A DNA stretch of 64,000 nucleotides from Brumimicrobium mesophilum (GTDB lineage: Bacteria; Bacteroidota; Bacteroidia; Flavobacteriales_D; Crocinitomicaceae), in contig NZ_PVSS01000001.1 of the NCBI RefSeq assembly GCF_003025005.1, positions 186,001 to 250,000 on the forward strand. Direction: 5' to 3'. Position 1 is the first letter of the stretch. Every line of letters begins with the position of its first letter. Of the stretch, positions 1 to 34,100 are shown in pieces. Under the pieces are notes generated by a model. The model had not been told where the DNA came from. It made no database searches and was given only the letters and a program-made list of their open reading frames with translations. Position numbers and translations under genes: made by a program.

Positions 1-884
1 CCTCGAGTTGCAGCTACAATACCACCAACGTGAGTTCCGTGCAATGCATCAGGACCTTCAACATCGTTGTTACCATAATCAGTATCAGTAATATCATAAA
101 TATCATCTCCTATTAAATCTCTTTCATTTAAATCTGGATTGTAATGACCATCAATCATTCCTTGAATTTGATCAATTTGTCCTTGAAGTGCTTCTTCATT
201 CAAGTCTCCTGATAATAAAGCTAATCCCATAGTCTTCATTTGGGCTTGTTGAGGACCTTCTGTCTTCCATTTTTTCAATGATTTCTCATCGTACTCTTCA
301 ACACCCATCATGTTAGAAATCATACCTGGAAGGTTTGGTAACATTTGGTCTTTGAATTGGTTGATTTGTCCAATAGTAGCGGTTAATCTTTCACGATTGC
401 TTTCCACTTCTTCCTTTGTTTCAATATAAAGAGCATATTCTTTAGCATCCTCACTTTTCACATCAGCAGAATCAACATTTTCGTATTTAGGCTTTAATTC
501 AGCATAAATTCTTGTAACATTTAAACGAGCAGTATTAATATTTTCACCTTTCTTGTTACCCAAAAAGTTCCAACCGTTAACGTCATCAATGTAACCATTG
601 TTATCATCATCTATTCCGTTTCCAGCAATTTCGCCTTTATTCACCCAAATTCTACCTTGCAAGTCTTCATGCTCAATATCAATTCCTGAATCAATGATTG
701 CAACAATAACTGTGTCTGGTGTAATTTTTTTAAGCTTCTTGTAAGCTTTTTCTGTAGACATTCCTGTCTTACTAGTGTTGTACCAATTTAATACTTTTTT
801 ATCTACCTGCGCTGTAGCTGTAGAAAAGTAAGCTCCTAAAAGAGCAGGAAGCATTATTCTTAAAAATATTTTTCTCATATTCAT
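1..884 (-). CDS. S8 subtilisin-like serine peptidase, N-terminal part (runs off the window)
   Basis: Translating the minus strand from ATG at 884 (or the in-frame ATG at 878) gives a signal-peptide-like start, then a subtilase catalytic Asp motif VAIIDSGIDIEHEDL (Asp about residue 65) and, at the very edge of the window, the catalytic His motif HGTHVGGIVAATR. The catalytic Ser lies outside the window. About 175 residues separate Asp and His, far more than in subtilisin; the insert is charged and helical-looking and follows a NGIDDDNNGYIDDVNGW calcium-binding-like stretch. This insert architecture is common in Bacteroidota secreted S8 peptidases. It is divergent from the S8 gene at 996, with a 111-bp shared intergenic region. 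Probably an exported protease; C-terminal sorting signal cannot be judged. Confidence 0.85.
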   Translation of the reverse strand, partial: MNMRKIFLRIMLPALLGAYFSTATAQVDKKVLNWYNTSKTGMSTEKAYKKLKKITPDTVIVAIIDSGIDIEHEDLQGRIWVNKGEIAGNGIDDDNNGYIDDVNGWNFLGNKKGENINTARLNVTRIYAELKPKYENVDSADVKSEDAKEYALYIETKEEVESNRERLTATIGQINQFKDQMLPNLPGMISNMMGVEEYDEKSLKKWKTEGPQQAQMKTMGLALLSGDLNEEALQGQIDQIQGMIDGHYNPDLNERDLIGDDIYDITDTDYGNNDVEGPDALHGTHVGGIVAATR

Positions 885-24309: not shown

Positions 24310-25050
24310 CTAACTCTCTAAGTCTTCCACTTTCTTGGTCAATTGATTAATCTGTGTCTGCAAATCCGACTGATTTTCCATTTTTCTATATTTTTGAAAA
24401 AGACCCACCAATACCCAGGATTCCTTGATATCAGAAATTGAAATTTCAATGGTTTCAATTGCAGGATGATCGGCAATTAACTCAACCTTCTCCTCTTTCT
24501 TTACTATTCGACATAATTTAATGTCGTCATACACAACGAGAACTGGTAGACTTTGATCAATATTTTCAAAACTGATTTTTTCCAACAACACAATATCTTT
24601 AGGGTACAATCCTCCTTGACTATCGCTCATTTCCAAATCAAAAACCTCATAAAATAGATATGTTTTATCTCCAACATCAATTGGCCATTTTATAAAAGGC
24701 ATATTATTTAAAAAACTTTCTTTCTGATGATGAATAATGTATTCCTCCTGATTTACTTTCGTTAGAAGCGGAATACGTGGGAAGGCCTTTCTTAATTGAC
24801 TTTCGTTGGTTGTAAGTTCAGTATTGAATTTCAATAATTCATTTATAGTCAATTCTCGCTTTAGCAAGTCGTCAATCGGTATGCTAAAATAATTAGCAAC
24901 ATTTATAATTGTTTCTATCTTAGGCTCACTCCTTCCTTCTTCATAAGCTCCTAAAGTCCCTCTTTTCAAATCAAACAAGTCTGCAAAGTTCATCTGAGAG
25001 AGAGACTTCAACTTTCTAATCTTCTTTATATTTGTTCCAAAAAATGACAT
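24310..25050 (-). CDS. XRE-family transcriptional regulator with S24-like domain, probable repressor of the divergent operon
   Basis: 246 residues. N-terminal HTH_3 domain at about 7-61 (IKKIRKLKSLSQMNFADLFD...GAYEEGRSEPKIET). The middle part, YLFYEVFDLEMSDSQGGLYPKDIVLLE followed by LPVLVVYDDIKLCRIVKK, resembles the LexA/CI S24 fold as used in Bacteroidota phage-like regulators; I cannot confirm an active Ser-Lys dyad. The last 20 residues form a short coiled coil (TQINQLTKKVEDLES). It is transcribed divergently from the PspA-flotillin operon across a 145-bp region with a palindrome, so control of that operon and itself is likely. Confidence 0.82.
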   Translation of the reverse strand: MSFFGTNIKKIRKLKSLSQMNFADLFDLKRGTLGAYEEGRSEPKIETIINVANYFSIPIDDLLKRELTINELLKFNTELTTNESQLRKAFPRIPLLTKVNQEEYIIHHQKESFLNNMPFIKWPIDVGDKTYLFYEVFDLEMSDSQGGLYPKDIVLLEKISFENIDQSLPVLVVYDDIKLCRIVKKEEKVELIADHPAIETIEISISDIKESWVLVGLFQKYRKMENQSDLQTQINQLTKKVEDLES

Positions 25051-25063
25051 TATGCTAATAAAA

Positions 25064-25094
25064 TTTGCAGATTAATAAAGATTATATATATTTG
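25064..25094 (+). promoter_or_regulatory. Promoter of the PspA-flotillin operon
   Basis: TTTG at 25064-25067, exactly 19 bp spacer, TATATTTG at 25087-25094: a perfect match to the Bacteroidota TTTG-N19-TAnnTTTG promoter. Predicted start near 25100, giving about a 95-nt leader before ATG 25196. Confidence 0.75.
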
Positions 25095-25097
25095 TAC

Positions 25098-25120
25098 TAT
25101 TAATTTTAGCTAAACTAATA
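25098..25120. promoter_or_regulatory. Candidate operator palindrome
   Basis: Core TTTAGCTAAA (25105-25114) is a perfect palindrome flanked by TATTA and TAATA arms at 25098-25102 and 25116-25120. It overlaps the predicted transcription start of the operon. Extra TAATA half-sites occur at 25056-25060 and 25073-25077. It is a natural binding site for the divergent XRE regulator, which is inference. Confidence 0.5.
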
Positions 25121-25195
25121 AAAAAACAAACACATGACATTAATAATTATTTATATTTTGACCAGCATCAAGGATATATTTTTTAAATTTAGCCT

Positions 25196-25588
25196 ATGAA
25201 TTACACAGAAACTATCAAACAATATTTGGTGGAGTTAGACTACACCATTACACACGAAAAAGAAGACGAAGGTATTTTAATAATTGAAAAGGAAGAATAT
25301 GGTGTAAAGAACCTAGTTTTAGGAATTACTCCACCTGTTTTAATCTTAGAACAATACATATTTAAAATAGACCAACCTTCAGCTGAAATTTTTCAAAGTC
25401 TACTTATAAAAAACAGAGAAATTATTCACGGCGCTTTTGTACTTGATGATTCTGGAAAGAAAGTAATTTTTAGAGACACTCTTCAAATTGAAACTTTAGA
25501 CATTGAAGAACTCGAAGCATCACTTAATTCACTCAGTTTATTAATGAGTGAATATGCAAATGAGATAATAAAATTCTCAAAATATTAA
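25196..25588 (+). CDS. YbjN-like / secretion-chaperone-like small protein, first gene of PspA operon
   Basis: 130 residues, acidic, no signal peptide. The order of elements (amphipathic helix MNYTETIKQYLVELDYTI, strand-rich middle GILIIEKEEYGVKNLVLGI, helix with IFQSLLIKNREIIHGAFVLD, final long helix) matches the YbjN/Tir-chaperone fold, but I assign it by pattern only. Homologues of this type often precede pspA genes in such operons (family knowledge, not checked). 11 bp separate it from the PspA gene. Confidence 0.6.
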   Translation: MNYTETIKQYLVELDYTITHEKEDEGILIIEKEEYGVKNLVLGITPPVLILEQYIFKIDQPSAEIFQSLLIKNREIIHGAFVLDDSGKKVIFRDTLQIETLDIEELEASLNSLSLLMSEYANEIIKFSKY

Positions 25589-25599
25589 AACGAAAAACA

Positions 25600-26295
25600 A
25601 TGAATATTTTTAAAAGATTATTTAGAATAGGAGAAGCAGAGGCAAACTCTGTTGTCGACAACATGGAAGATCCAATTAAATTAACTGAGCAAGGAATCAG
25701 AGATCTTAAAAATGACTTGACAAAAAGTCTTGAGGCTTTAGCACAAGTAAAGGCTTCTAGCATCATGTCAAGAAATGACGAAAAGAAACATTTAAACCAG
25801 GCTACAATTTTTGAAGAAAAAGCAATTGCAATTCTCAAAAACAAGGATTTAGATGATGCTGCAAAAGACAATTTAGCACAACAAGCTTTGATTAAGAAAG
25901 GCGAATTGGAAAAAATGGCTCAAAACGCTAATGAAGAACATGAGCGCACAAGTAAAGCCGTTGTAGAAATTGAAACTAATATTGCCAAATTAAAAAGCAA
26001 TATCTCTAAATGGGAAAGTGAACTTCGTACATTAAAATCGCGTGTCAAAGTAAGCAAGGCTCAATCCAGCTTGAATAAGCAAATGGCAGGAATGGACAGT
26101 AACGGAACGGTAGAAATGCTCAAAAGAATGCAGCAAAAAGTAGAGGAAGAAGAGGCAAAAGCTGAAGCCTACGGCGACATTGCTAATAACTCAACTTCAG
26201 TAGAAGATGAAATTGATAAAGCAGCAGACCTAACTTCATCCAAAGCGGAAAGTGAATTAGAAGCATTGAAGAAAAAAATCGCGAATAACTCCTAA
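25600..26295 (+). CDS. PspA/IM30 (Vipp1) family protein
   Basis: 231 residues, almost entirely long heptad-patterned helices (about residues 25-190). The N-terminus MNIFKRLFRIGEAEANSVVDNMEDPIKLTEQGIRDL matches PspA helix alpha0 plus the conserved DP and E-x-x-I-R-D start of the PspA/IM30 domain. PspA and Vipp1 belong to the ESCRT-III superfamily and polymerise on stressed or curved membranes. Here it lies between a YbjN-like protein and an OB-fold membrane protein, in one operon with flotillin and an AAA+ ATPase that could remodel the polymer. No pspB, pspC or pspF is present. Confidence 0.9.
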   Translation: MNIFKRLFRIGEAEANSVVDNMEDPIKLTEQGIRDLKNDLTKSLEALAQVKASSIMSRNDEKKHLNQATIFEEKAIAILKNKDLDDAAKDNLAQQALIKKGELEKMAQNANEEHERTSKAVVEIETNIAKLKSNISKWESELRTLKSRVKVSKAQSSLNKQMAGMDSNGTVEMLKRMQQKVEEEEAKAEAYGDIANNSTSVEDEIDKAADLTSSKAESELEALKKKIANNS

Positions 26296-26301
26296 AATTA
26301 A

Positions 26302-27003
26302 ATGATAGAAATTTTATTTTCACCTGTCAATTTTGCACTTACTTTACTTGTTTTGGTGCTGGTTGCATATTGGTTAATTTCTATTATTGGAGGATTAGAT
26401 TTCGAAATAGATTTTGATGTAGATGTAGATATTGACGCAGATATTGATATTAGTTCTGGCTTAGATGCAACATCCATTGAAGACATCGCTAATATCGAAG
26501 TCAACAAAGAAGATGTAGTTAACAAAAGAAGACAGCCTCTAAAATGGTGGCAAATCTTCCTAATCTACTTCAACTTTGTGGGATTGCCGTTTATGTTCAC
26601 ATTAACTTCATTCATTTTCATCTGGTGGATTATTTCTGTTGTTTCAACTTCATTCTTTAATCTCTACGAGACCAATTTAGGATTTGTGATAATGGTTCTG
26701 AGTTTTATACCAGCTCTTTTTATCACAAAGATTTTTACAAGTCCTTTCAAATCATTTTTCAGCAAATTCAACAAAGACGGAGATGCTCCAGTTGATTTCA
26801 TAGGAAGAGAAGGAACTAGTTTATCGAGTATTTCAGCCGATAAAATGGGAAATGCAGAGGTCATTATTGATGGAAATCCTTATTCTATCTATATTAAATC
26901 AGAAAATGGAGAACCCATTGCTTACAATGAGAATTTTCTAATTATCAGAAATTCACCAACAAAAAGCTATTATTACGTTCAATCATATAAAAACAATTAT
27001 TAA
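26302..27003 (+). CDS. YqiJ/NfeD-like OB-fold membrane protein
   Basis: 233 residues. Membrane segments at about 10-30, 88-118 and 126-146. Between the first two is a strongly acidic alternating stretch FEIDFDVDVDIDADIDI (residues 34-50). The C-terminal part (about 163-233, DFIGREGTSLSSIS... AEVIIDGNPYSIYIKSENGEPI) is an OB-fold as in NfeD and E. coli YqiJ. NfeD/YqiJ proteins are encoded next to flotillin/SPFH proteins and act with them in membrane microdomains. Here it is 6 bp after pspA and 17 bp before flotillin, supporting the same role. Confidence 0.82.
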   Translation: MIEILFSPVNFALTLLVLVLVAYWLISIIGGLDFEIDFDVDVDIDADIDISSGLDATSIEDIANIEVNKEDVVNKRRQPLKWWQIFLIYFNFVGLPFMFTLTSFIFIWWIISVVSTSFFNLYETNLGFVIMVLSFIPALFITKIFTSPFKSFFSKFNKDGDAPVDFIGREGTSLSSISADKMGNAEVIIDGNPYSIYIKSENGEPIAYNENFLIIRNSPTKSYYYVQSYKNNY

Positions 27004-27020
27004 ACACATCACTAAAAATT

Positions 27021-29084
27021 ATGGATCTATTACAATTATCACTTTTTATAGTCGGGGCGGTTGTCTTCCTTGCCCTGGTGTACATGGCTATTATTGCCAT
27101 GTTCTACAAAAAAATCCCTCAAGGTCAAGCCTTAGTTAGAACGGGACTTGGAGGAACTAAAATTGCGACAGACAAAGGAATGTACGTAATTCCAGTATTC
27201 CACAAAATTGAAATCATGGATATTTCGGTTAAGAAAATCGAAATTGAAAGAATGGAAACTGAAGGTCTGATTTGTAAAGACAATATGCGTGCAGATATCA
27301 AAGTTGCATTTTTCGTAAGGGTGAACAACGATATAAACGCTATAAAGAAAGTTGCTCAAACTATTGGCTGTGAGAGAGCATCTAGAATTCAAACCTTAGA
27401 AGAACTTTTTGAAGCGAAATTTTCTGAAGCCTTAAAATCTGTAGGTAAGAAGTTTGAATTTATAGAACTATACGAAGCTCGAAGAGAATTCAGAGATGAA
27501 ATCGTGAACATCATCGGAACAGACTTAAATGGCTACACACTAGAAGATTGTGCGATAGATTATTTAGAACAAACACCAGTAGGTTTCTTAAAATCAAACA
27601 ACATTCTTGATGCGGAAGGGATTAAGAAAATTACTGAATTAACAGCTGAACAAAACAAGAAAGCCAATCTTATTAAACGCGATGAAGAGAAGGTAATTCG
27701 CAAGCAAGATGTTGAAGCAAGAGAAGCTATCTTAGAATTAGATAGGCAATTAGCTGAAAAGGAAGAATCTCAAAAAAGAGAAATTGCTAACATTAAATCT
27801 CGTGAAGAAGCACAAGTATCAAAAGTTAGAGAAGAAGAACGCTTAAAATCTGAAAATGCGCGCATTTTAACAGAAGAAAAAGTAAAAGTTGCAGAAGAAA
27901 ACATGCAACGTCAGATAATCGTTGCGCTTAAGAACAAAGAAAGAACTGAAGCTGTAGAGACCGAACGTGTCGAAAAAGACCGTGCTTTAGAACAAACCGA
28001 GAGAGAGCGTATTGTAACACTTGCACAAATTGAAAAAGAAAAGGTTGTTGAGGTAGAAAAGAAAAACATTCAAGATGTTATTCGTGATCGCGTAACTTTA
28101 GAAAAAGGAGTTGTTGAAGAGCAAGAAAACATGAAAGATATTCAAGCTTTCAAAACTGCAGACAGAGAGAAACAAGTTGCTATTACTAGAGCGGAGTCTC
28201 AAGCGCAAGATCTTCTAATCAAAACGATAAAAGAAGCTGAAGGTAAGAAAGAAGCCATGAAGCAAAAGGCGGAAGAAATTAATATTGAAGCTCTAGCTAA
28301 GAAAGAAGCAAGTTCTAAGGAAGCCGAAGCGCGTAAAATAATTGCAGACGCCAAAGCAAAAGAAGAAGCTATTTTAGGTATTTCTGAAGCACAAGTAATG
28401 CACGCAAAAGCAGATGCCAACGAAAGACAAGGAATTGTAGATGCTTTAATAACAGAAAAACAAGCAATTGCTGAAGCCAAAGGAATTGAAGTTAAAGCAG
28501 ATGCAAAACGCAAAGATGGATTGGCAGAAGCAGAAGTAATGAAAGAAAAAGCTATGGCTGAAGCTCGCGGAATCGAAGAGAAGGCCGAAGCAATGAAGAA
28601 ACTGGATGGTGTTGGAAAAGACCACGAGGAATTCAAGCTGAGATTAGATAAAGAATTACAAATTGATCTTGCTGGAATAAATATTCAGAAGGATATTGCG
28701 GATGCTCAAGCTTCCGTTATCGCGGAAGCACTTAAAGCTGCCAACATTGATATCGTAGGTGGAGAAACAATGTTCTTTGATCAAATTATCGGCCAAATCA
28801 CACGTTCTAAAGGAATAGATAGATTAGTAAATCACAGTGAGAACATCACAGAAGTGAAAGACGCAATTTTATCAAATGATGATGTTCAAGGTAATTTAAT
28901 CGACAAGATCAAAAACATGGCAGACCGTTATGGAATTGGTTCAGAAGACATCAAAAACTTGAGCATAGCTAATTTATTGTTGAAAATGAACAATAAAGCA
29001 GACAATGAAGAAGACAATAACATGTTGACCAATTTAATGAACATGGCAAAAGGTATGGGAATTGGCGACAAGAAATTGAACTAA
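27021..29084 (+). CDS. Flotillin-family SPFH/Band 7 protein (YqiK-like)
   Basis: 687 residues. N-terminal membrane anchor at about 5-28, then the SPFH/Band 7 domain (about 30-200; IPQGQALVRTGLGGTKIATDKGMYVIPVFHKIEIMDIS is the usual flotillin start). Residues about 205-560 form a very long Glu/Lys/Ala-rich coiled coil (repeated AEAKGIEVKADAKRK-like segments), and the last 100 residues form a flotillin C-terminal region. Flotillins oligomerise into membrane platforms. At 687 residues it is longer than FloT (about 510) and similar to the YqiK branch. It partners with the OB-fold protein encoded immediately upstream. Confidence 0.93.
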   Translation: MDLLQLSLFIVGAVVFLALVYMAIIAMFYKKIPQGQALVRTGLGGTKIATDKGMYVIPVFHKIEIMDISVKKIEIERMETEGLICKDNMRADIKVAFFVRVNNDINAIKKVAQTIGCERASRIQTLEELFEAKFSEALKSVGKKFEFIELYEARREFRDEIVNIIGTDLNGYTLEDCAIDYLEQTPVGFLKSNNILDAEGIKKITELTAEQNKKANLIKRDEEKVIRKQDVEAREAILELDRQLAEKEESQKREIANIKSREEAQVSKVREEERLKSENARILTEEKVKVAEENMQRQIIVALKNKERTEAVETERVEKDRALEQTERERIVTLAQIEKEKVVEVEKKNIQDVIRDRVTLEKGVVEEQENMKDIQAFKTADREKQVAITRAESQAQDLLIKTIKEAEGKKEAMKQKAEEINIEALAKKEASSKEAEARKIIADAKAKEEAILGISEAQVMHAKADANERQGIVDALITEKQAIAEAKGIEVKADAKRKDGLAEAEVMKEKAMAEARGIEEKAEAMKKLDGVGKDHEEFKLRLDKELQIDLAGINIQKDIADAQASVIAEALKAANIDIVGGETMFFDQIIGQITRSKGIDRLVNHSENITEVKDAILSNDDVQGNLIDKIKNMADRYGIGSEDIKNLSIANLLLKMNNKADNEEDNNMLTNLMNMAKGMGIGDKKLN

Positions 29085-29106
29085 TTCTTTAAAATAAAAC
29101 CTTAAG

Positions 29107-29153
29107 ATTTGTGGAATATTCTAGTAAAGCACTTTATTAGGTATTCCACAAAT
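29107..29153 (+). terminator. Strong intercistronic hairpin (partial terminator or attenuator)
   Basis: Perfect 12-bp outer stem ATTTGTGGAATA (29107-29118) / TATTCCACAAAT (29142-29153) with an inner CTAGTAAAG / CTTTATTAG stem. It lies 22 bp after the flotillin stop. There is no T-run beyond AATTAATT, so it could trim, stabilise or attenuate expression before the ATPase gene. Confidence 0.6.
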
Positions 29154-29261
29154 TAATTCTGAGAAAATAAAGAATTCAAGAAATAACATTTTTCATAATA
29201 CGCTATAATTCCTTTGTTTCATTTAGTTTAAGCTAATCAGTCAAGAAAACATTTCCAATAA

Positions 29262-32200
29262 ATGGCAGAAAACAAAAATTCAGATCAGTTAAATAAAGAC
29301 ACTTACGAAATTATTCGTGGGAGGTTAAAAACACATTCCAATGAGCTTCAAGTTCGAATTTCGAAATTGAATGAATCTCGAAAAGATGTCTTTGGTGCGT
29401 TGGAAACAAAATTGATTGACAACAATCGAATTCTAACCGAAAACAATTGTATTCCTCGAGATATAATCTCCTTTGACAACACATGTATTTTCGGTTATAA
29501 TGTAAATTTTGGTTTACGTTCGGAAATTAAATTGTCTGATGTTTTTAGCATTTATGAATTTAAAGACAACAACTTTGAACCAGCTTCTTATGATTTTATT
29601 AGCGATGAGCAGTTTGAAACTGACTTCGTAAACCTTTACAAATATTATAGAAATACTTTTTTTACACGCTTTGGACACATAGAGAATTTCCTATTTATGG
29701 TTTTCCAAATAAGTGAAAACCCTGATGACATAAAAACTTTCAAATGGCTAATTAAAGACAATCAACTCACCTATATTGACGCCAGAAGTGAGCATGAATA
29801 CAATTTACCACCTCAACATGAGTTTCAATGGCAAGAAATTGACAGAGACATGCACCGCTATGGTGAACATCCTCACGTTTCAGTTTTAGATAAAGTTTTT
29901 GTGGAAAGTGTTGGTGGAGATTTGACCATAAAAATTGAAGACAATACCGCAGATGGAGATGGAATCTACTCAGAAAGTGTAGAATACCGTGACCAAACCT
30001 TGGATGATGGAAAGGTAAGATTTTCAGAATTTGGCAACTTGATCCCAATAGAAATAACTCCATTTCAAGAAGAACCTCGATACTTCTTGTACAACCATAA
30101 AATGCGTGAAGTTCAGCGTATCGACAGCATACAACGGACCGCTGTGTTCTTACCAGACAATCAAGGATTAATTTTCCCAACTGGTTATTATCTTCAAACT
30201 GGCGAATATCACCTATTTGATAATTCCATCGAAGGAATCGAATTCGTTAAAAAAGTGGCTTCACCAAATGGGGAAGACTATTTGTATGTTTTCTATTCTA
30301 ACATACTTGGTTTATACAACCTAATGCATTACAATGTCATTTCTCAAAAGGTAAAAACCCCAATTGTTTGTAATGGTTACACCATTTTTAAAGAAGGTCA
30401 GCTCTGCTATTTTAGAAATGAGAATGAGCAAACCAAGCACCATATTATTCAGATATGGCAAACACCGTTTACAAAAGAAGCAATTGCTCCTGCAGAGCAC
30501 ACGGAGTCACTGATTTACAAAATTGGAAATAAAGACATCGTTAAAGCCATGGCTGAAGCCCATGGAATTATCAATCTGCTCAATAAAGGCGATAATTACG
30601 CTGATTTATATGTTGATATTGCCAAGAACGCAAAAGACATTCTAGATGCTTATTATTGGTTAAATGAGGAAGAGACAATGCGCCTCGACGAACCCATTAA
30701 AGAAATTAGAAAAACTGCTCATTCCGCAATAGATGAATTTGAAAGAGTTGTTGAATTAAGGAAAAATGCGAAAGAAGAAAGCCATAAAATAGCGACTGTT
30801 GCCAATGAGGTTTTTAGCAAAATTAAAAGCACTTCCTTCAAAAATATAGATGAATTCGTTAAACTATTAACTTCTTTAAGACAAATCCGAGGTGAGGTAA
30901 TCACGTTAAGAGATGTTCGATATATCGATGAAGAAATCTTAAACAAAATTGAAGAGGAAGTTGAAGAATATCAAGATAAAATCTCCAAACGATGTGTAGA
31001 ATTCTTATTGGACGAGAAAGCTTTAAAGCCATATGACGACAAGCTAATTGATAAAGAAAAAGCCTTAGTAGAAAGTAAAAAAGTATTTGAAATTAAAGCG
31101 TTAGAAACTGAAATTTCCAATATAGGTATCGAACTCGAAATGCTTATTGAAATCGTTAGTAATCTAGAAATTGAAGATACCACACATACGATTAAAATAA
31201 TTGACGCTATTTCTTTAATTTATTCTCGACTCAATCAATTAAAAGCTGCAGCAAAAAACAAGAAGCAAAACTTAGGTGGTGCAGAAGCAAAAGCAGCATT
31301 CGCAACGCAAATAAAGTTAATTGAACAGAGTGTTTTTAATTACTTCGATATGGCCGACACTCCAGAAAAGTGTGACGAATATCAAAACAAAGTAGCAGTA
31401 CAACTTGAAGATTTAGAAGCCAAATTTATAGATTACGATCATTTCGCATTAGAAATTGCTGAAAAAAGAGAAGAGATTTTTGCATCTTTCGACACTAGGA
31501 AAAGTGAGCTAATTGAAAAGAAAAATCGCCGAACAGTTGCTATAAAAACAACTTCTGAACGCATCATTAATGGGATTGTAAACAAGCTTAAAAATCTAGA
31601 ATCAGAGCAAGAAATAAATGCACATTTCGCTTCTGATTTGATGGTCAATAAAGTTAGAGACAACATAAACGAGCTTCTAGCGCTAGAAGATCAAGGAAAA
31701 GCAGAATCTCTGGAAACAGCTTTAAAAGTTGCGAAAGAAGATTCCTTTAGACAGCTTAAAGACCGTAAAGATTTATATGAGGATGGGAATTCAGTAATCA
31801 AATTTGGTCAGCATAGGTTTGGTGTTAACCAACAGAAACTTGACATAACGCTCGTTCTTAAAAACGAAGAATTATTTTATCATTTAACCGGAACAGATTT
31901 TTATCAACCCTTGACGAATCCGCTATTGGAAAGTGGAAGGAGATTCTGGTCGCAAGATTACGCTTCTGAAAATAAAGAGGTTTACAGAAGTGAATATTTA
32001 GCTTACAAAGTTTTCAAAAAGGAAAACAAATTGGGCGAGCTAACACCAGAAATGTGGGAAGAAAAAGTGAAAGCAGAAAGTAGTATAAACTACTCTGAAG
32101 GATACACTAAAGGAGTGCATGACGAAGATGCTTTACTGATTTTAAACATTTTAGTAGAAAAACATAAAAGCCTTGGCCTATTAACTTTCACTTCTAAAAC

Positions 32201-34100
32201 AAGAGCACATGCCCAATATTTTTGGCATGCTTTAGCGAAAGAAAAACAAGTGCGTTTGTTGAGATTAATCAAGACAACAGGTGAAGTTTTCAAAACTTTT
32301 CCTAATGCTCAAAATGAAAGTTTCGTTGAACTAGAATTACAAGAGGAAATTTCACAATTTGCTGAGAACTCTAAACTTTTTGAAATAGCTGAAAAAAAGC
32401 AAATCGCACAATATTTAGTAAAAGAGTTACAATCTGATGACATATTTGCTATTTCGATTGAGGCTTTTGACCTAAATGAAGAATTTCAACAATCTTTAAA
32501 AGAAAAAAAACAAGACAAACGTTATCAACTTACGTTAGAAGAAACTGACAATTTAAAAGAGAAAATTCAAACCGCAAAGCAATGGTTTATGGCTTTTTCT
32601 CAATCAAAAACAGAGAATAACACCGTGTTTTTAGAAGAAGCTGTCTGTTTATCTCTATTCTCAGAATCTTTTTCCCAGCCAGAAACACATCTATCTGCTA
32701 AAGAAACAATCATAGGGTTCAAAGGAAATCACAAGGTTTTAGAAGATGAAAAATACATTTTTGATTACCATAATTTCATCCAAAAATTAGAAGCATTTTC
32801 GGAAATAGAAGTCCCAGCTTATCATGCGTTTAGAGAAACACGTCATCAAGTACTTGAAGAACTCAAAGAGCAACTTAAACTCAGTGAATTTATGCCTGTT
32901 GTTTTGTCTTCATTCGTGCGAAATAAATTGATTGACGAAGTTTATTTACCTCTTTTCGGAAGTAATCTCGCCAAACAAATGGGAACAGTTGGTGAAAATA
33001 AGCGTGTGGACAGAATGGGTCTACTCCTACTGATTTCTCCACCTGGTTATGGTAAAACCACGCTTATGGAATACATCTGTAACAGGTTAGGATTGGTTTT
33101 TATGAAAATAAATGGACCTGCCATTGGACACGAAGTAACATCTGTTGACCCAGAAGCTGCAACTAACAGTGCTAGTAGAGAAGAATTAAAAAAGTTGAAT
33201 CTTGCTTTCGAAATGGGGAATAATGTGATGCTTTATCTGGACGATATTCAACATTGTAATCCAGAATTCTTACAGAAATTTATTTCACTTTCTGATGGAA
33301 CAAGACGTATTGAAGGTGTTTACAATGGAAAACCTAAAACGTATGATTTAAGAAGTAAAAAATTCAGTGTGATCATGGCTGGAAATCCGTATACCGAAAG
33401 TGGTGAACGTTTTAGAATCCCAGATATGTTAGCGAATAGAGCTGACATTTATAATCTCGGTGATATTATCGGTGACACAAAAGACTTCTTCGAACTCAGT
33501 TTAATCGAGAATTCCTTAACGGCGAATTCTACATTAAGTCAATTAAGAAATAAATCGATGGAAGATTTGTATGCTTTAATTAGACAAGTGCAAACAGGTC
33601 AACAAGCCGAACTTGAAGCTACACATAGTCAACAAGACTTGCAAGATTACGTTTCTGTGCTCGAAAAAGTAATTAAAGTTCGAGATACGGTTTTAAAAGT
33701 AAACGAAACCTACATCAAGAGTGCTGCAATGGAAGATTCCTACAGAACAGAGCCAGCATTTAAACTCCAGGGATCTTACCGAGACATGAACAAGCTTGTG
33801 GAGAAAATCGTTTCTATTATGAACAATGATGAACTACAAACTTTGCTCAACACGCATTATGAAAGTGAATCACAAACATTAACTGGACAAGCAGAAGCAA
33901 ATTTATTGAAATTTAAAGAATTGAGTCAAACATTGACAGAAGTAGAAGCTCAACGTTGGGAATCAATAAAAGAAACTTTCTTAAAAAACAACAAGTTGAA
34001 AGGATTATCCGACACCAATGAAATGGGTCAAATCATATCTCAATTGATGGATTTCAATGCAAATTTAGGAGGGATTCAAAAAGCGATAAAAAAGGATTAA
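29262..34100 (+). CDS. Giant MoxR-like AAA+ ATPase with long coiled coil (DUF3686-type)
   Basis: 1612 residues, no signal peptide or membrane helix. The N-terminal part (about 60-430) is a beta-rich domain matching the DUF3686 family, whose members are annotated as ATPases involved in DNA repair without direct evidence. Residues about 440-800 are long helices and coiled coil. The AAA+ module is C-terminal: Walker A ISPPGYGKTTLMEYI with Lys1265, Walker B VMLYLDDIQHCN with Asp1327-Asp1328, sensor 1 VIMAGNPY and RADIYNLGDI afterwards. Last gene of the PspA-flotillin operon, separated by a 177-bp gap with a hairpin. A remodelling partner for PspA or flotillin assemblies is my inference. Confidence 0.85.
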   Translation: MAENKNSDQLNKDTYEIIRGRLKTHSNELQVRISKLNESRKDVFGALETKLIDNNRILTENNCIPRDIISFDNTCIFGYNVNFGLRSEIKLSDVFSIYEFKDNNFEPASYDFISDEQFETDFVNLYKYYRNTFFTRFGHIENFLFMVFQISENPDDIKTFKWLIKDNQLTYIDARSEHEYNLPPQHEFQWQEIDRDMHRYGEHPHVSVLDKVFVESVGGDLTIKIEDNTADGDGIYSESVEYRDQTLDDGKVRFSEFGNLIPIEITPFQEEPRYFLYNHKMREVQRIDSIQRTAVFLPDNQGLIFPTGYYLQTGEYHLFDNSIEGIEFVKKVASPNGEDYLYVFYSNILGLYNLMHYNVISQKVKTPIVCNGYTIFKEGQLCYFRNENEQTKHHIIQIWQTPFTKEAIAPAEHTESLIYKIGNKDIVKAMAEAHGIINLLNKGDNYADLYVDIAKNAKDILDAYYWLNEEETMRLDEPIKEIRKTAHSAIDEFERVVELRKNAKEESHKIATVANEVFSKIKSTSFKNIDEFVKLLTSLRQIRGEVITLRDVRYIDEEILNKIEEEVEEYQDKISKRCVEFLLDEKALKPYDDKLIDKEKALVESKKVFEIKALETEISNIGIELEMLIEIVSNLEIEDTTHTIKIIDAISLIYSRLNQLKAAAKNKKQNLGGAEAKAAFATQIKLIEQSVFNYFDMADTPEKCDEYQNKVAVQLEDLEAKFIDYDHFALEIAEKREEIFASFDTRKSELIEKKNRRTVAIKTTSERIINGIVNKLKNLESEQEINAHFASDLMVNKVRDNINELLALEDQGKAESLETALKVAKEDSFRQLKDRKDLYEDGNSVIKFGQHRFGVNQQKLDITLVLKNEELFYHLTGTDFYQPLTNPLLESGRRFWSQDYASENKEVYRSEYLAYKVFKKENKLGELTPEMWEEKVKAESSINYSEGYTKGVHDEDALLILNILVEKHKSLGLLTFTSKTRAHAQYFWHALAKEKQVRLLRLIKTTGEVFKTFPNAQNESFVELELQEEISQFAENSKLFEIAEKKQIAQYLVKELQSDDIFAISIEAFDLNEEFQQSLKEKKQDKRYQLTLEETDNLKEKIQTAKQWFMAFSQSKTENNTVFLEEAVCLSLFSESFSQPETHLSAKETIIGFKGNHKVLEDEKYIFDYHNFIQKLEAFSEIEVPAYHAFRETRHQVLEELKEQLKLSEFMPVVLSSFVRNKLIDEVYLPLFGSNLAKQMGTVGENKRVDRMGLLLLISPPGYGKTTLMEYICNRLGLVFMKINGPAIGHEVTSVDPEAATNSASREELKKLNLAFEMGNNVMLYLDDIQHCNPEFLQKFISLSDGTRRIEGVYNGKPKTYDLRSKKFSVIMAGNPYTESGERFRIPDMLANRADIYNLGDIIGDTKDFFELSLIENSLTANSTLSQLRNKSMEDLYALIRQVQTGQQAELEATHSQQDLQDYVSVLEKVIKVRDTVLKVNETYIKSAAMEDSYRTEPAFKLQGSYRDMNKLVEKIVSIMNNDELQTLLNTHYESESQTLTGQAEANLLKFKELSQTLTEVEAQRWESIKETFLKNNKLKGLSDTNEMGQIISQLMDFNANLGGIQKAIKKD

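What the first reader, a model, noticed from the sequence alone, without database searches (positions are those of the whole stretch)
24310..34100. XRE-controlled PspA / OB-fold / flotillin / giant AAA+ ATPase operon: a candidate bacterial membrane-remodelling machine
Seen: five same-strand genes with gaps of 11, 6, 17 and 177 bp encode YbjN-like, PspA/IM30, YqiJ/NfeD-like OB-fold membrane, 687-aa flotillin and 1612-aa AAA+ proteins; a regulator sits divergently. Known: PspA/Vipp1 belong to the ESCRT-III superfamily, flotillin and NfeD/YqiJ-type proteins act together, and ESCRT-III filaments in eukaryotes are disassembled by an AAA ATPase (Vps4). Inferred: the giant ATPase, usually labelled only as DNA-repair ATPase, may remodel PspA or flotillin assemblies, giving a functional analogue of ESCRT-III plus Vps4 on flotillin platforms. 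pspB, pspC and pspF are absent.
Basis: partly seen in the sequence, partly recalled or inferred. Interest (0 to 1): 0.75.

Follow-up and report, generated by a model that had tools for sequence, protein, structure and literature searches.

The report
Flotillin-coupled giant ATPase stress operon
This is a bacterial membrane-stress operon whose gene set was already described in print; comparing relatives suggests that its giant ATPase is tied to the flotillin scaffold rather than to the ESCRT-like protein PspA, which looks like an optional add-on.

Summary
The operon is real and at the stated coordinates: a divergent XRE regulator, then CesT/Tir-type chaperone, PspA, YqiJ-like membrane protein, 687-aa flotillin and 1612-aa AAA+ ATPase. 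It is not new: Ravi et al. 2024 (PMC11237479, sections 18-19 read) describe this gene set and already suggest ESCRT-like roles. Of 74 loci with at least 8 kb upstream, 73 carry YqiJ and flotillin beside the ATPase but 51 carry PspA. Of 38 genomes with the ATPase and no operon-type PspA seen beside it, 14 have no PspA match at all. The modelled AAA+ domain has a hairpin before sensor 1, its listed structural matches are MCM, RuvB, MoxR, Lon and dynein, and no MIT domain is found, so it looks unlike Vps4, though Pfam's classic AAA model also matches. XRE-CesT-PspA behaves as a separable module with a conserved operator. Best reading: a flotillin/YqiJ-docked AAA+ remodeller for envelope stress, to which PspA repair modules were attached more than once. 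No interaction was tested.

The parts
24310..25050 (-). XRE regulator, 246 aa, N-terminal HTH_3; C-terminal part related to S24/LexA-like domains in several homologues
   Evidence: Peptidase_S24 at E<=0.1 in 8 of 14 family members, not in the window protein
25053..25069 (+). Predicted operator dyad TGCTAATAAAATTTGCA
   Evidence: exact in 28 of 50 XRE-CesT intergenic regions (window included); composition-only shuffles gave 0 exact and 0.1 per 50 at one mismatch; 1 exact match in the window. The motif was found in the same sequences it was counted in
25064..25094 (+). Predicted Bacteroidota-type promoter TTTG-19 bp-TATATTTG overlapping the operator
   Evidence: 26 of 28 exact-dyad loci carry TTTG-17..22-TAnnTTT(G/A). 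The promoter consensus is recalled, not from a call
25106..25113 (+). Second half-site TTAGCTAA just downstream of the predicted promoter
   Evidence: position; similar CTAACAATATTAGC visible in many homologues, not counted
25196..25588 (+). CesT/Tir-type chaperone-like protein, 130 aa
   Evidence: PF22550 E 1.9e-54
25600..26295 (+). PspA/IM30 (ESCRT-III superfamily), 231 aa
   Evidence: PF04012 E 3.5e-40; one match in the genome
26302..27003 (+). YqiJ/NfeD-like membrane protein, 233 aa, N-terminal hydrophobic segment and a further hydrophobic block at about 85-148
   Evidence: YqiJ_N in 9 of 21 family members, not in the window protein; hydropathy; alignment A5. OB fold not tested
27021..29084 (+). 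Flotillin/SPFH protein, 687 aa, one N-terminal hydrophobic segment, Band_7 at 30-175, long charged region
29262..34100 (+). DUF3686 giant AAA+ ATPase, 1612 aa: beta-propeller (about 50-400), helical stalk (about 417-831), second mixed domain, AAA+ domain (about 1240-1540), C-terminal helices
   Evidence: Pfam; AlphaFold models of two overlapping halves; K1265, D1327, D1328, N1375, R1393 and R1507 invariant in 109 of 109 aligned ATPases

Best explanation
The locus is a two-module envelope-stress operon. Core module: YqiJ-like membrane protein + flotillin + DUF3686 AAA+ ATPase. YqiJ and flotillin most likely form a membrane scaffold on the inner membrane (inferred from known NfeD-flotillin pairs). 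The soluble ATPase most likely docks on it through its beta-propeller and helical stalk and uses its AAA+ ring to remodel flotillin, or membrane proteins held by it (inferred). Add-on module: XRE regulator + CesT chaperone + PspA. The regulator probably represses the operon promoter by binding a dyad over the -33 box. On membrane stress it would release, and PspA, kept in check by CesT, would coat and mend damaged membrane next to the scaffold. Shown: gene content, order, co-occurrence pattern, modelled fold, intact active site, operator conservation. Inferred: every physical contact, ring formation, the substrate, the inducing signal.
For: Flot+YqiJ beside the ATPase in 73 of 74 loci with >=8 kb upstream; the exception (L089) has the flotillin elsewhere in its genome. 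Flot in 11 of 11 and YqiJ in 10 of 11 plasmid-collection records fetched, from 4 phyla, and both in 13 of 13 further Planctomycetota. The long flotillin at 54% identity or more is in 6 of 198 sampled Bacteroidota genomes, the same 6 that have the ATPase; 10 more genomes have only flotillins at 29-37% and no ATPase (one search scored 5 candidates a genome). PspA module separable: its presence needs 6 changes on the ATPase tree, 5 of them forced by starred branches, though it is also strongly clustered by lineage (shuffled mean 31.7). XRE, CesT and PspA stand together in the Aureivirga marina genome without YqiJ or flotillin in the stretch held (L096), apart from its ATPase locus (L055). Active site invariant in 109 of 109. 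No hydrophobic window in the window ATPase. Operator/promoter overlap. In P. aeruginosa a related six-gene operon is co-transcribed by RT-PCR, loss of the CesT-like BacA raises the other products, and a BacA-BacB (PspA-like) interaction is mentioned as unpublished (PMC10948618 passages); PA3728-PA3732 are reported up in all phage-infected samples (PMC12041424 passage). That PA3728 is the DUF3686 protein is my inference from gene order and its label 'ATPase'.
Against: No interaction, localisation or activity was tested. Constant neighbourhood could mean shared regulation rather than contact. Walker B reads D-D, not the usual D-E (recalled), so hydrolysis could be slow, though this is invariant. 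In Bacteroidota most ATPase loci do have PspA, so PspA may matter there. 5 of 109 ATPases have one hydrophobic window. One locus has flotillin without a YqiJ match (L123). A reported paFlo3 (PA14_16180) deletion has only weak phenotypes (about 20% less biofilm; PMC13086221 passages), and a pa3728 transposon mutant grows well and served as an 'unrelated gene' control (PMC12599236 passages).
Confidence: 0.5

Rival explanations
1. One reading: the ATPase disassembles or remodels PspA filaments, an ESCRT-III + Vps4 analogue on flotillin platforms.
For: PspA is an ESCRT-III homologue and lies in the operon in 51 of 74 loci and in all 6 ATPase-bearing genomes of the Bacteroidota sample. Ravi et al. 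suggest ATP-dependent remodelling for PspA-AAA+ associations in general. Pfam's classic AAA model matches 6 of 6 ATPases and the best sequence matches among solved structures are p97, though only over the P-loop.
Against: ATPase with flotillin in genomes with no PspA match: 14 of 38. Modelled AAA+ domain carries a hairpin before sensor 1 and none of its 50 listed structural matches is Vps4 or p97. No MIT match. 76 of 82 PspA-bearing genomes in the Bacteroidota sample lack the ATPase.
Confidence: 0.2
2. SPFH-caged quality control with hand-over, in the manner of HflKC-FtsH or prohibitin-m-AAA: the ATPase extracts damaged membrane proteins gathered by flotillin and passes them to a separate protease. 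It differs from the best explanation in making degradation the purpose.
For: Constant pairing of SPFH and AAA+ proteins here resembles these systems; an FtsH-HflK/C assembly appears in a search listing, the rest is recalled. CesT is chaperone-like.
Against: No protease domain and no membrane anchor in the ATPase. I saw no protease gene in the core, but neighbours outside the six genes were looked at only in the flotillin-ATPase gap.
Confidence: 0.2
3. DNA repair or anti-phage defence function, as the label 'ATPase involved in DNA repair' implies.
For: Pfam and record labels; structural resemblance of the AAA+ domain to RuvB and MCM; phage-induced expression in P. aeruginosa; patchy spread, 6 of 60 family genomes including the window's own and 0 of 4 other genus members; presence in plasmid records.
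Against: PADLOC gave only general HTH, AAA and coiled-coil similarity; constant membrane-protein neighbours; similarity to RuvB is shared with MoxR and Lon.
Confidence: 0.1

Closest known systems
CesT/Tir-PspA + band-7/flotillin + AAA+ (coiled coil, beta-propeller) + YqiJ/YuaF operon of Ravi et al. 2024 (PMC11237479; sections 18-19 read, other passages)
   Same: Same five genes and domain make-up; that paper also notes abbreviated flotillin/YqiJ/AAA+ operons and suggests ESCRT-like roles.
   Different: The parts I read give no counts; here the ATPase's tie to flotillin/YqiJ and its occurrence without PspA are counted, an XRE operator is predicted and the AAA+ type is examined.
P. aeruginosa bac operon (PA14_16140-16200; PMC10948618 passages)
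   Same: YjfI/CesT-like BacA, PspA-like BacB, and per PMC13086221 (passages) a short NfeD and the flotillin paFlo3, with two more co-transcribed genes.
   Different: BacA is of the DUF2170 type and a sigma-54 site is proposed instead of an XRE repressor; that bacE is DUF3686 is inferred, not tested.
B. subtilis PspA-YdjGHI (PMC8581546 abstract; PMC9239133 passages)
   Same: An SPFH protein is required to bring PspA to the membrane.
   Different: No AAA+ ATPase of this kind in the text seen; different membrane partners.
HflK/C-FtsH and prohibitin-m-AAA (recalled; FtsH-HflK/C in the listing)
   Same: SPFH assembly paired with an AAA+ enzyme.
   Different: FtsH is membrane-anchored with a protease domain; here the enzyme looks soluble, has a beta-propeller and no protease domain.
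ESCRT-III/Vps4
   Same: PspA belongs to the ESCRT-III superfamily.
   Different: No MIT domain found in the ATPase, its modelled AAA+ fold matches other groups, and it exists without PspA.

Membership tests
Ravi et al. CesT/Tir-PspA-flotillin-AAA+-YqiJ operon | CesT/Tir-PspA dyad | tested here: met
   PF22550 and PF04012 in adjacent genes
Ravi et al. [quoted passage not shown]
   Band_7, one N-terminal hydrophobic segment; coiled coil judged by eye only
Ravi et al. [quoted passage not shown]
   AlphaFold model with strands 50-400 then long helices, Foldseek hits mostly to propellers at low TM-score, AAA domain
Ravi et al. CesT/Tir-PspA-flotillin-AAA+-YqiJ operon | YqiJ/YuaF-type 3TM protein | tested here: met
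   YqiJ_N in 9 of 21 aligned family members; the window protein itself has no such hit
ESCRT-III/Vps4 pair | ESCRT-III superfamily filament protein | tested here: met
   PspA_IM30 family; superfamily link from PMC8281802 (search listing). Filaments not tested
ESCRT-III/Vps4 pair | MIT domain in the ATPase | tested here: not met
   No MIT family among Pfam matches up to E 1
ESCRT-III/Vps4 pair | Classic-clade AAA domain | tested here: inconclusive
   Against: hairpin 1349-1362 before the sensor-1 strand 1368-1374 (its clade meaning is recalled); no Vps4 or p97 among the 50 listed of 114 structural matches at E<=0.001; AAA_5 is the best Pfam model. For: Pfam AAA also passes its cut-off; p97 tops the sequence matches, P-loop only
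ESCRT-III/Vps4 pair | ATPase occurs with its ESCRT-III substrate | tested here: not met
   14 of 38 ATPase-bearing genomes examined have no PspA match; other ESCRT-III families (Snf7) were not searched
HflKC-FtsH type SPFH-protease complex | Membrane-anchored AAA+ with M41 protease | tested here: not met
   No M41 family; no hydrophobic window in the window ATPase
Canonical pspFABC system | pspB, pspC, pspF beside pspA | tested here: not met
   None among the six genes; PspC domain once elsewhere in the genome
Functional remodeller of PspA or flotillin | ATP-dependent change of the assembly | not testable with these tools
   needs biochemistry

The most novel reading that the evidence does not exclude
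DUF3686 is a dedicated, PspA-independent flotillin remodeller: a MoxR/RuvB-like AAA+ ring on a beta-propeller stalk that works on YqiJ-flotillin scaffolds in about eight bacterial phyla, to which Bacteroidota and some pseudomonads separately added PspA repair modules.
Probability: 0.4. Interest if true: 0.65.

Novelty: already known. Interest (0 to 1): 0.38.

Why it matters
The operon class is in print, but I found no experimental study of its ATPase (searches; DUF3686 is named in 0 papers), and it is still labelled a DNA-repair enzyme. Showing which neighbours it depends on makes a question testable: does a soluble AAA+ machine drive bacterial flotillin scaffolds? That would fill a gap in how membrane microdomains are turned over, and would steer work away from an assumed Vps4 role.

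Tried and rejected
YbjN as the best name for the first gene: rejected, CesT_Tir_1 scores far higher. Defence system: PADLOC gave only general HTH, AAA and coiled-coil similarity. One-phylum accident: rejected, the core is seen under about eight phylum names. PspA-less loci being contig artefacts: the 12 of 86 loci with under 8 kb upstream were kept out of the main count; in the tree the cut was 6.5 kb and 12 of 108 rows were unlabelled. VIA-align second look: library unavailable. Sequence search of solved structures gave matches at E 0.005 or weaker, mostly p97 and RuvB, over the P-loop. Promoter and terminator scan: sigma-70-like sites 28 against 32.7 expected and terminator-like 5 against 4.5, none of the terminators on the + strand after the ATPase, so no terminator is claimed.

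Against the tidy picture: in one Planctomycete (G249, L142) a divergent PspA-family gene, not found by my operon-PspA profile, lies about 3.3 kb upstream of YqiJ. For another (G258, L150) no sequence upstream of YqiJ was held, so PspA there cannot be judged. L079 and L087, counted among the 25 genomes, have only 4.9 and 5.3 kb upstream. L061 has PspA without CesT or XRE. Streptomyces globosus has flotillin + ATPase without a YqiJ match. Completeness of the 38 genomes is not told. Of the 14 without PspA, four are not marked MAG in their titles (Hyunsoonleella pacifica, two Pontibacter, Rhodopirellula baltica), seven are MAGs and three are unnamed. The 80 loci are the best of 547 and so biased towards close relatives, which favours PspA-bearing loci. 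The samples include their own centre, which has the ATPase. The shuffles keep base composition only, not dinucleotides or relatedness.

Rows left out: A2 and A3 used 58 and 59 sequences, from the window and related-loci loci only; the fetch from genomes and plasmid loci and near-duplicates were left out, as the folding tool admits only some sources. A4 used 39 of 51 PspA rows plus pQBR103's. The tree used 108 of 109 ATPases (L018 is partial); the fragment in L152 was not aligned. One of the 12 plasmid records (H3, Proteus mirabilis, very like H2 in its row) was not fetched. The ten insert ORFs were picked by eye.
Full report
Observation. Pfam names them XRE (HTH_3), CesT_Tir_1, PspA_IM30, unnamed, Band_7, and DUF3686 + DUF7902 + AAA. 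The fourth is YqiJ-like through its family (YqiJ_N in 9 of 21 aligned members). PspA has one match in this 3.88 Mb genome. PspC is not in the locus but is present once elsewhere.

Known already. Sections 18 and 19 of Ravi et al. 2024 (PMC11237479, both read; other passages) describe a CesT/Tir-PspA operon with a TM-band-7-flotillin protein, an AAA+ ATPase with coiled coil and beta-propeller, and a YqiJ/YuaF 3TM protein. They also note shorter operons without PspA and propose ESCRT-like roles. Popp et al. 2022 (PMC9239133, passages) report band-7 genes, and an NfeD gene, beside pspA. A P. aeruginosa relative, bac, is a six-gene operon by RT-PCR (PMC10948618, passages). DUF3686 is named in 0 papers of the library, and 'DNA repair ATPase' together with flotillin in 0.

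Distribution. DUF3686 is patchy: 6 of 198 sampled Bacteroidota, 14 of 99 Planctomycetota and 6 of 60 genomes of the window's family, with 0 of 4 other members of its genus. Each of these samples includes its own centre, which has the gene. It is also in 12 plasmid-collection records, some of them chromosome-sized.

Neighbourhoods. I labelled ORFs in 86 loci (80, 5, and the window) with profiles built from the window proteins and their matches. In the 74 loci with at least 8 kb upstream, flotillin and YqiJ are present in 73, PspA in 51, CesT and XRE in 50. The one exception, L089, has the flotillin elsewhere in its genome. In 11 plasmid-collection loci flotillin is present in 11, YqiJ in 10 and PspA in 2, within 9 kb. 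In 13 further Planctomycetota loci YqiJ and flotillin are in 13 and operon-type PspA in 0; L150 holds nothing upstream of YqiJ, and L142 has a divergent PspA-family gene about 3.3 kb upstream. Five further genomes of the window's family all have PspA, one cut by its contig end. By record titles and taxonomy lines the core is seen in Bacteroidota, Planctomycetota, Calditrichota, Thermodesulfobacteriota, Fibrobacterota (one MAG title only), Pseudomonadota, Actinomycetota and Deinococcota.

PspA independence. Of 25 ATPase-bearing genomes without operon-type PspA beside the ATPase, 11 have no PspA_IM30 match at E<=1e-3, and one more only a match below the curated cut-off. Of the 13 Planctomycetota, 3 have none. 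A profile of operon PspA found 0 of these 15; the same profile found 7 of 7 controls. Conversely 82 of 198 Bacteroidota genomes have PspA and only 6 of these have the ATPase. On the ATPase tree the PspA label needs 6 changes, 5 forced by starred branches; it is also clustered by lineage (shuffled mean 31.7). In Aureivirga marina XRE, CesT and PspA stand together away from the ATPase locus (L096), and in two other genomes CesT sits beside a detached PspA (L095, L107). The PspA of pQBR103 is only 25% identical to the window's and sits with polyamine genes, which suggests a separate attachment. So there are two separable modules.

The ATPase. The AlphaFold model of residues 1-832 (mean pLDDT 87.9) shows strands from 50 to 400 and long helices from 417; Foldseek matches include beta-propellers such as DCAF1 and Vps18, with low TM-scores. 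The model of 800-1612 (pLDDT 85.9) holds an AAA+ domain with a beta-hairpin (1349-1354, 1357-1362) before the sensor-1 strand (1368-1374). Its listed structural matches are MCM, RuvB, the MoxR types CbbQ and NorQ, Lon, Hsp104/ClpA and dynein, with no Vps4 or p97 among the 50 shown of 114. By sequence the best Pfam AAA model is AAA_5, with classic AAA close behind and also over its cut-off in the window protein, and p97 leads the weak P-loop matches among solved structures. The clade is therefore likely, not settled. The superclade meaning of the hairpin is recalled. K1265, D1327, D1328, N1375, R1393 and R1507 are invariant in 109 of 109; their motif names are recalled, and calling R1393 the arginine finger is a guess.

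Control. In 28 of 50 XRE-CesT intergenic regions, the window's included, an exact dyad TGCTAANNNNATTTGCA occurs; composition shuffles gave 0 exact and 0.1 per 50 at one mismatch. In 26 of these 28 it overlaps the TTTG box of a Bacteroidota-type promoter (consensus recalled). This suggests repression by the XRE protein, whose family carries an S24-like domain in 8 of 14 members. The window protein has no S24 hit in Pfam, so an autocleaving sensor is not shown.

Mechanism. The data favour a flotillin/YqiJ-docked AAA+ remodeller with PspA as an attached repair arm. Contacts, substrate and inducer are inferred. Outside support: PA3728-PA3732 rise in all phage-infected P. aeruginosa samples (PMC12041424, passage). 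PA3728 appears, as 'ATPase', in a table of a review of adaptation to the cystic-fibrosis lung, with three references; I saw the row, not the heading (PMC8190622, passage). It is also listed among predictor genes of baseline lung function (PMC10210962, passage). Weak phenotypes of the flotillin deletion and good growth of a pa3728 mutant count against a vital role (PMC13086221 and PMC12599236, passages).

Verdict. The finding is accurate as an observation, known as an operon, and partly misdirected as a mechanism.

Noticed in passing
L008, L016, L022, L031, L045, L062, L063, L084, L090: gap between flotillin and ATPase genes: The flotillin-ATPase gap repeatedly holds small endonuclease-family genes: DUF559 in 7 and GIY-YIG in 2 of 10 insert ORFs that I picked by eye and scanned, as if it were a favoured insertion site.
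   Followed up: partly
L114:977-14181 (plasmid pQBR103): One plasmid locus joins a YjfI-PspA-polyamine gene set (glutathionylspermidine synthase, DUF350, DUF1190, DUF2491) to YqiJ-flotillin-ATPase, two operon classes in one.
   Followed up: no
L142:2128-4644 (G249): A divergent PspA-family gene is followed by a 569-aa ORF that was not identified, about 3.3 kb upstream of YqiJ-flotillin-DUF3686.
   Followed up: no
109 DUF3686 proteins, window residue 1328: Walker B reads D-D rather than D-E in 109 of 109, unusual for an active AAA+ enzyme (recalled).
   Followed up: no
window 24882-24898: A near copy of the operator dyad (TGCTAAAATAATTAGCA, one mismatch) lies inside the XRE gene.
   Followed up: no
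L108:1402-3016 (G205, Calditrichia): A second detached PspA sits beside a YqiJ-like gene, with no flotillin match in the stretch held.
   Followed up: no
L118:18131-18664: A TerD-family gene lies about 4 kb from the flotillin-ATPase pair on a Streptomyces plasmid.
   Followed up: no
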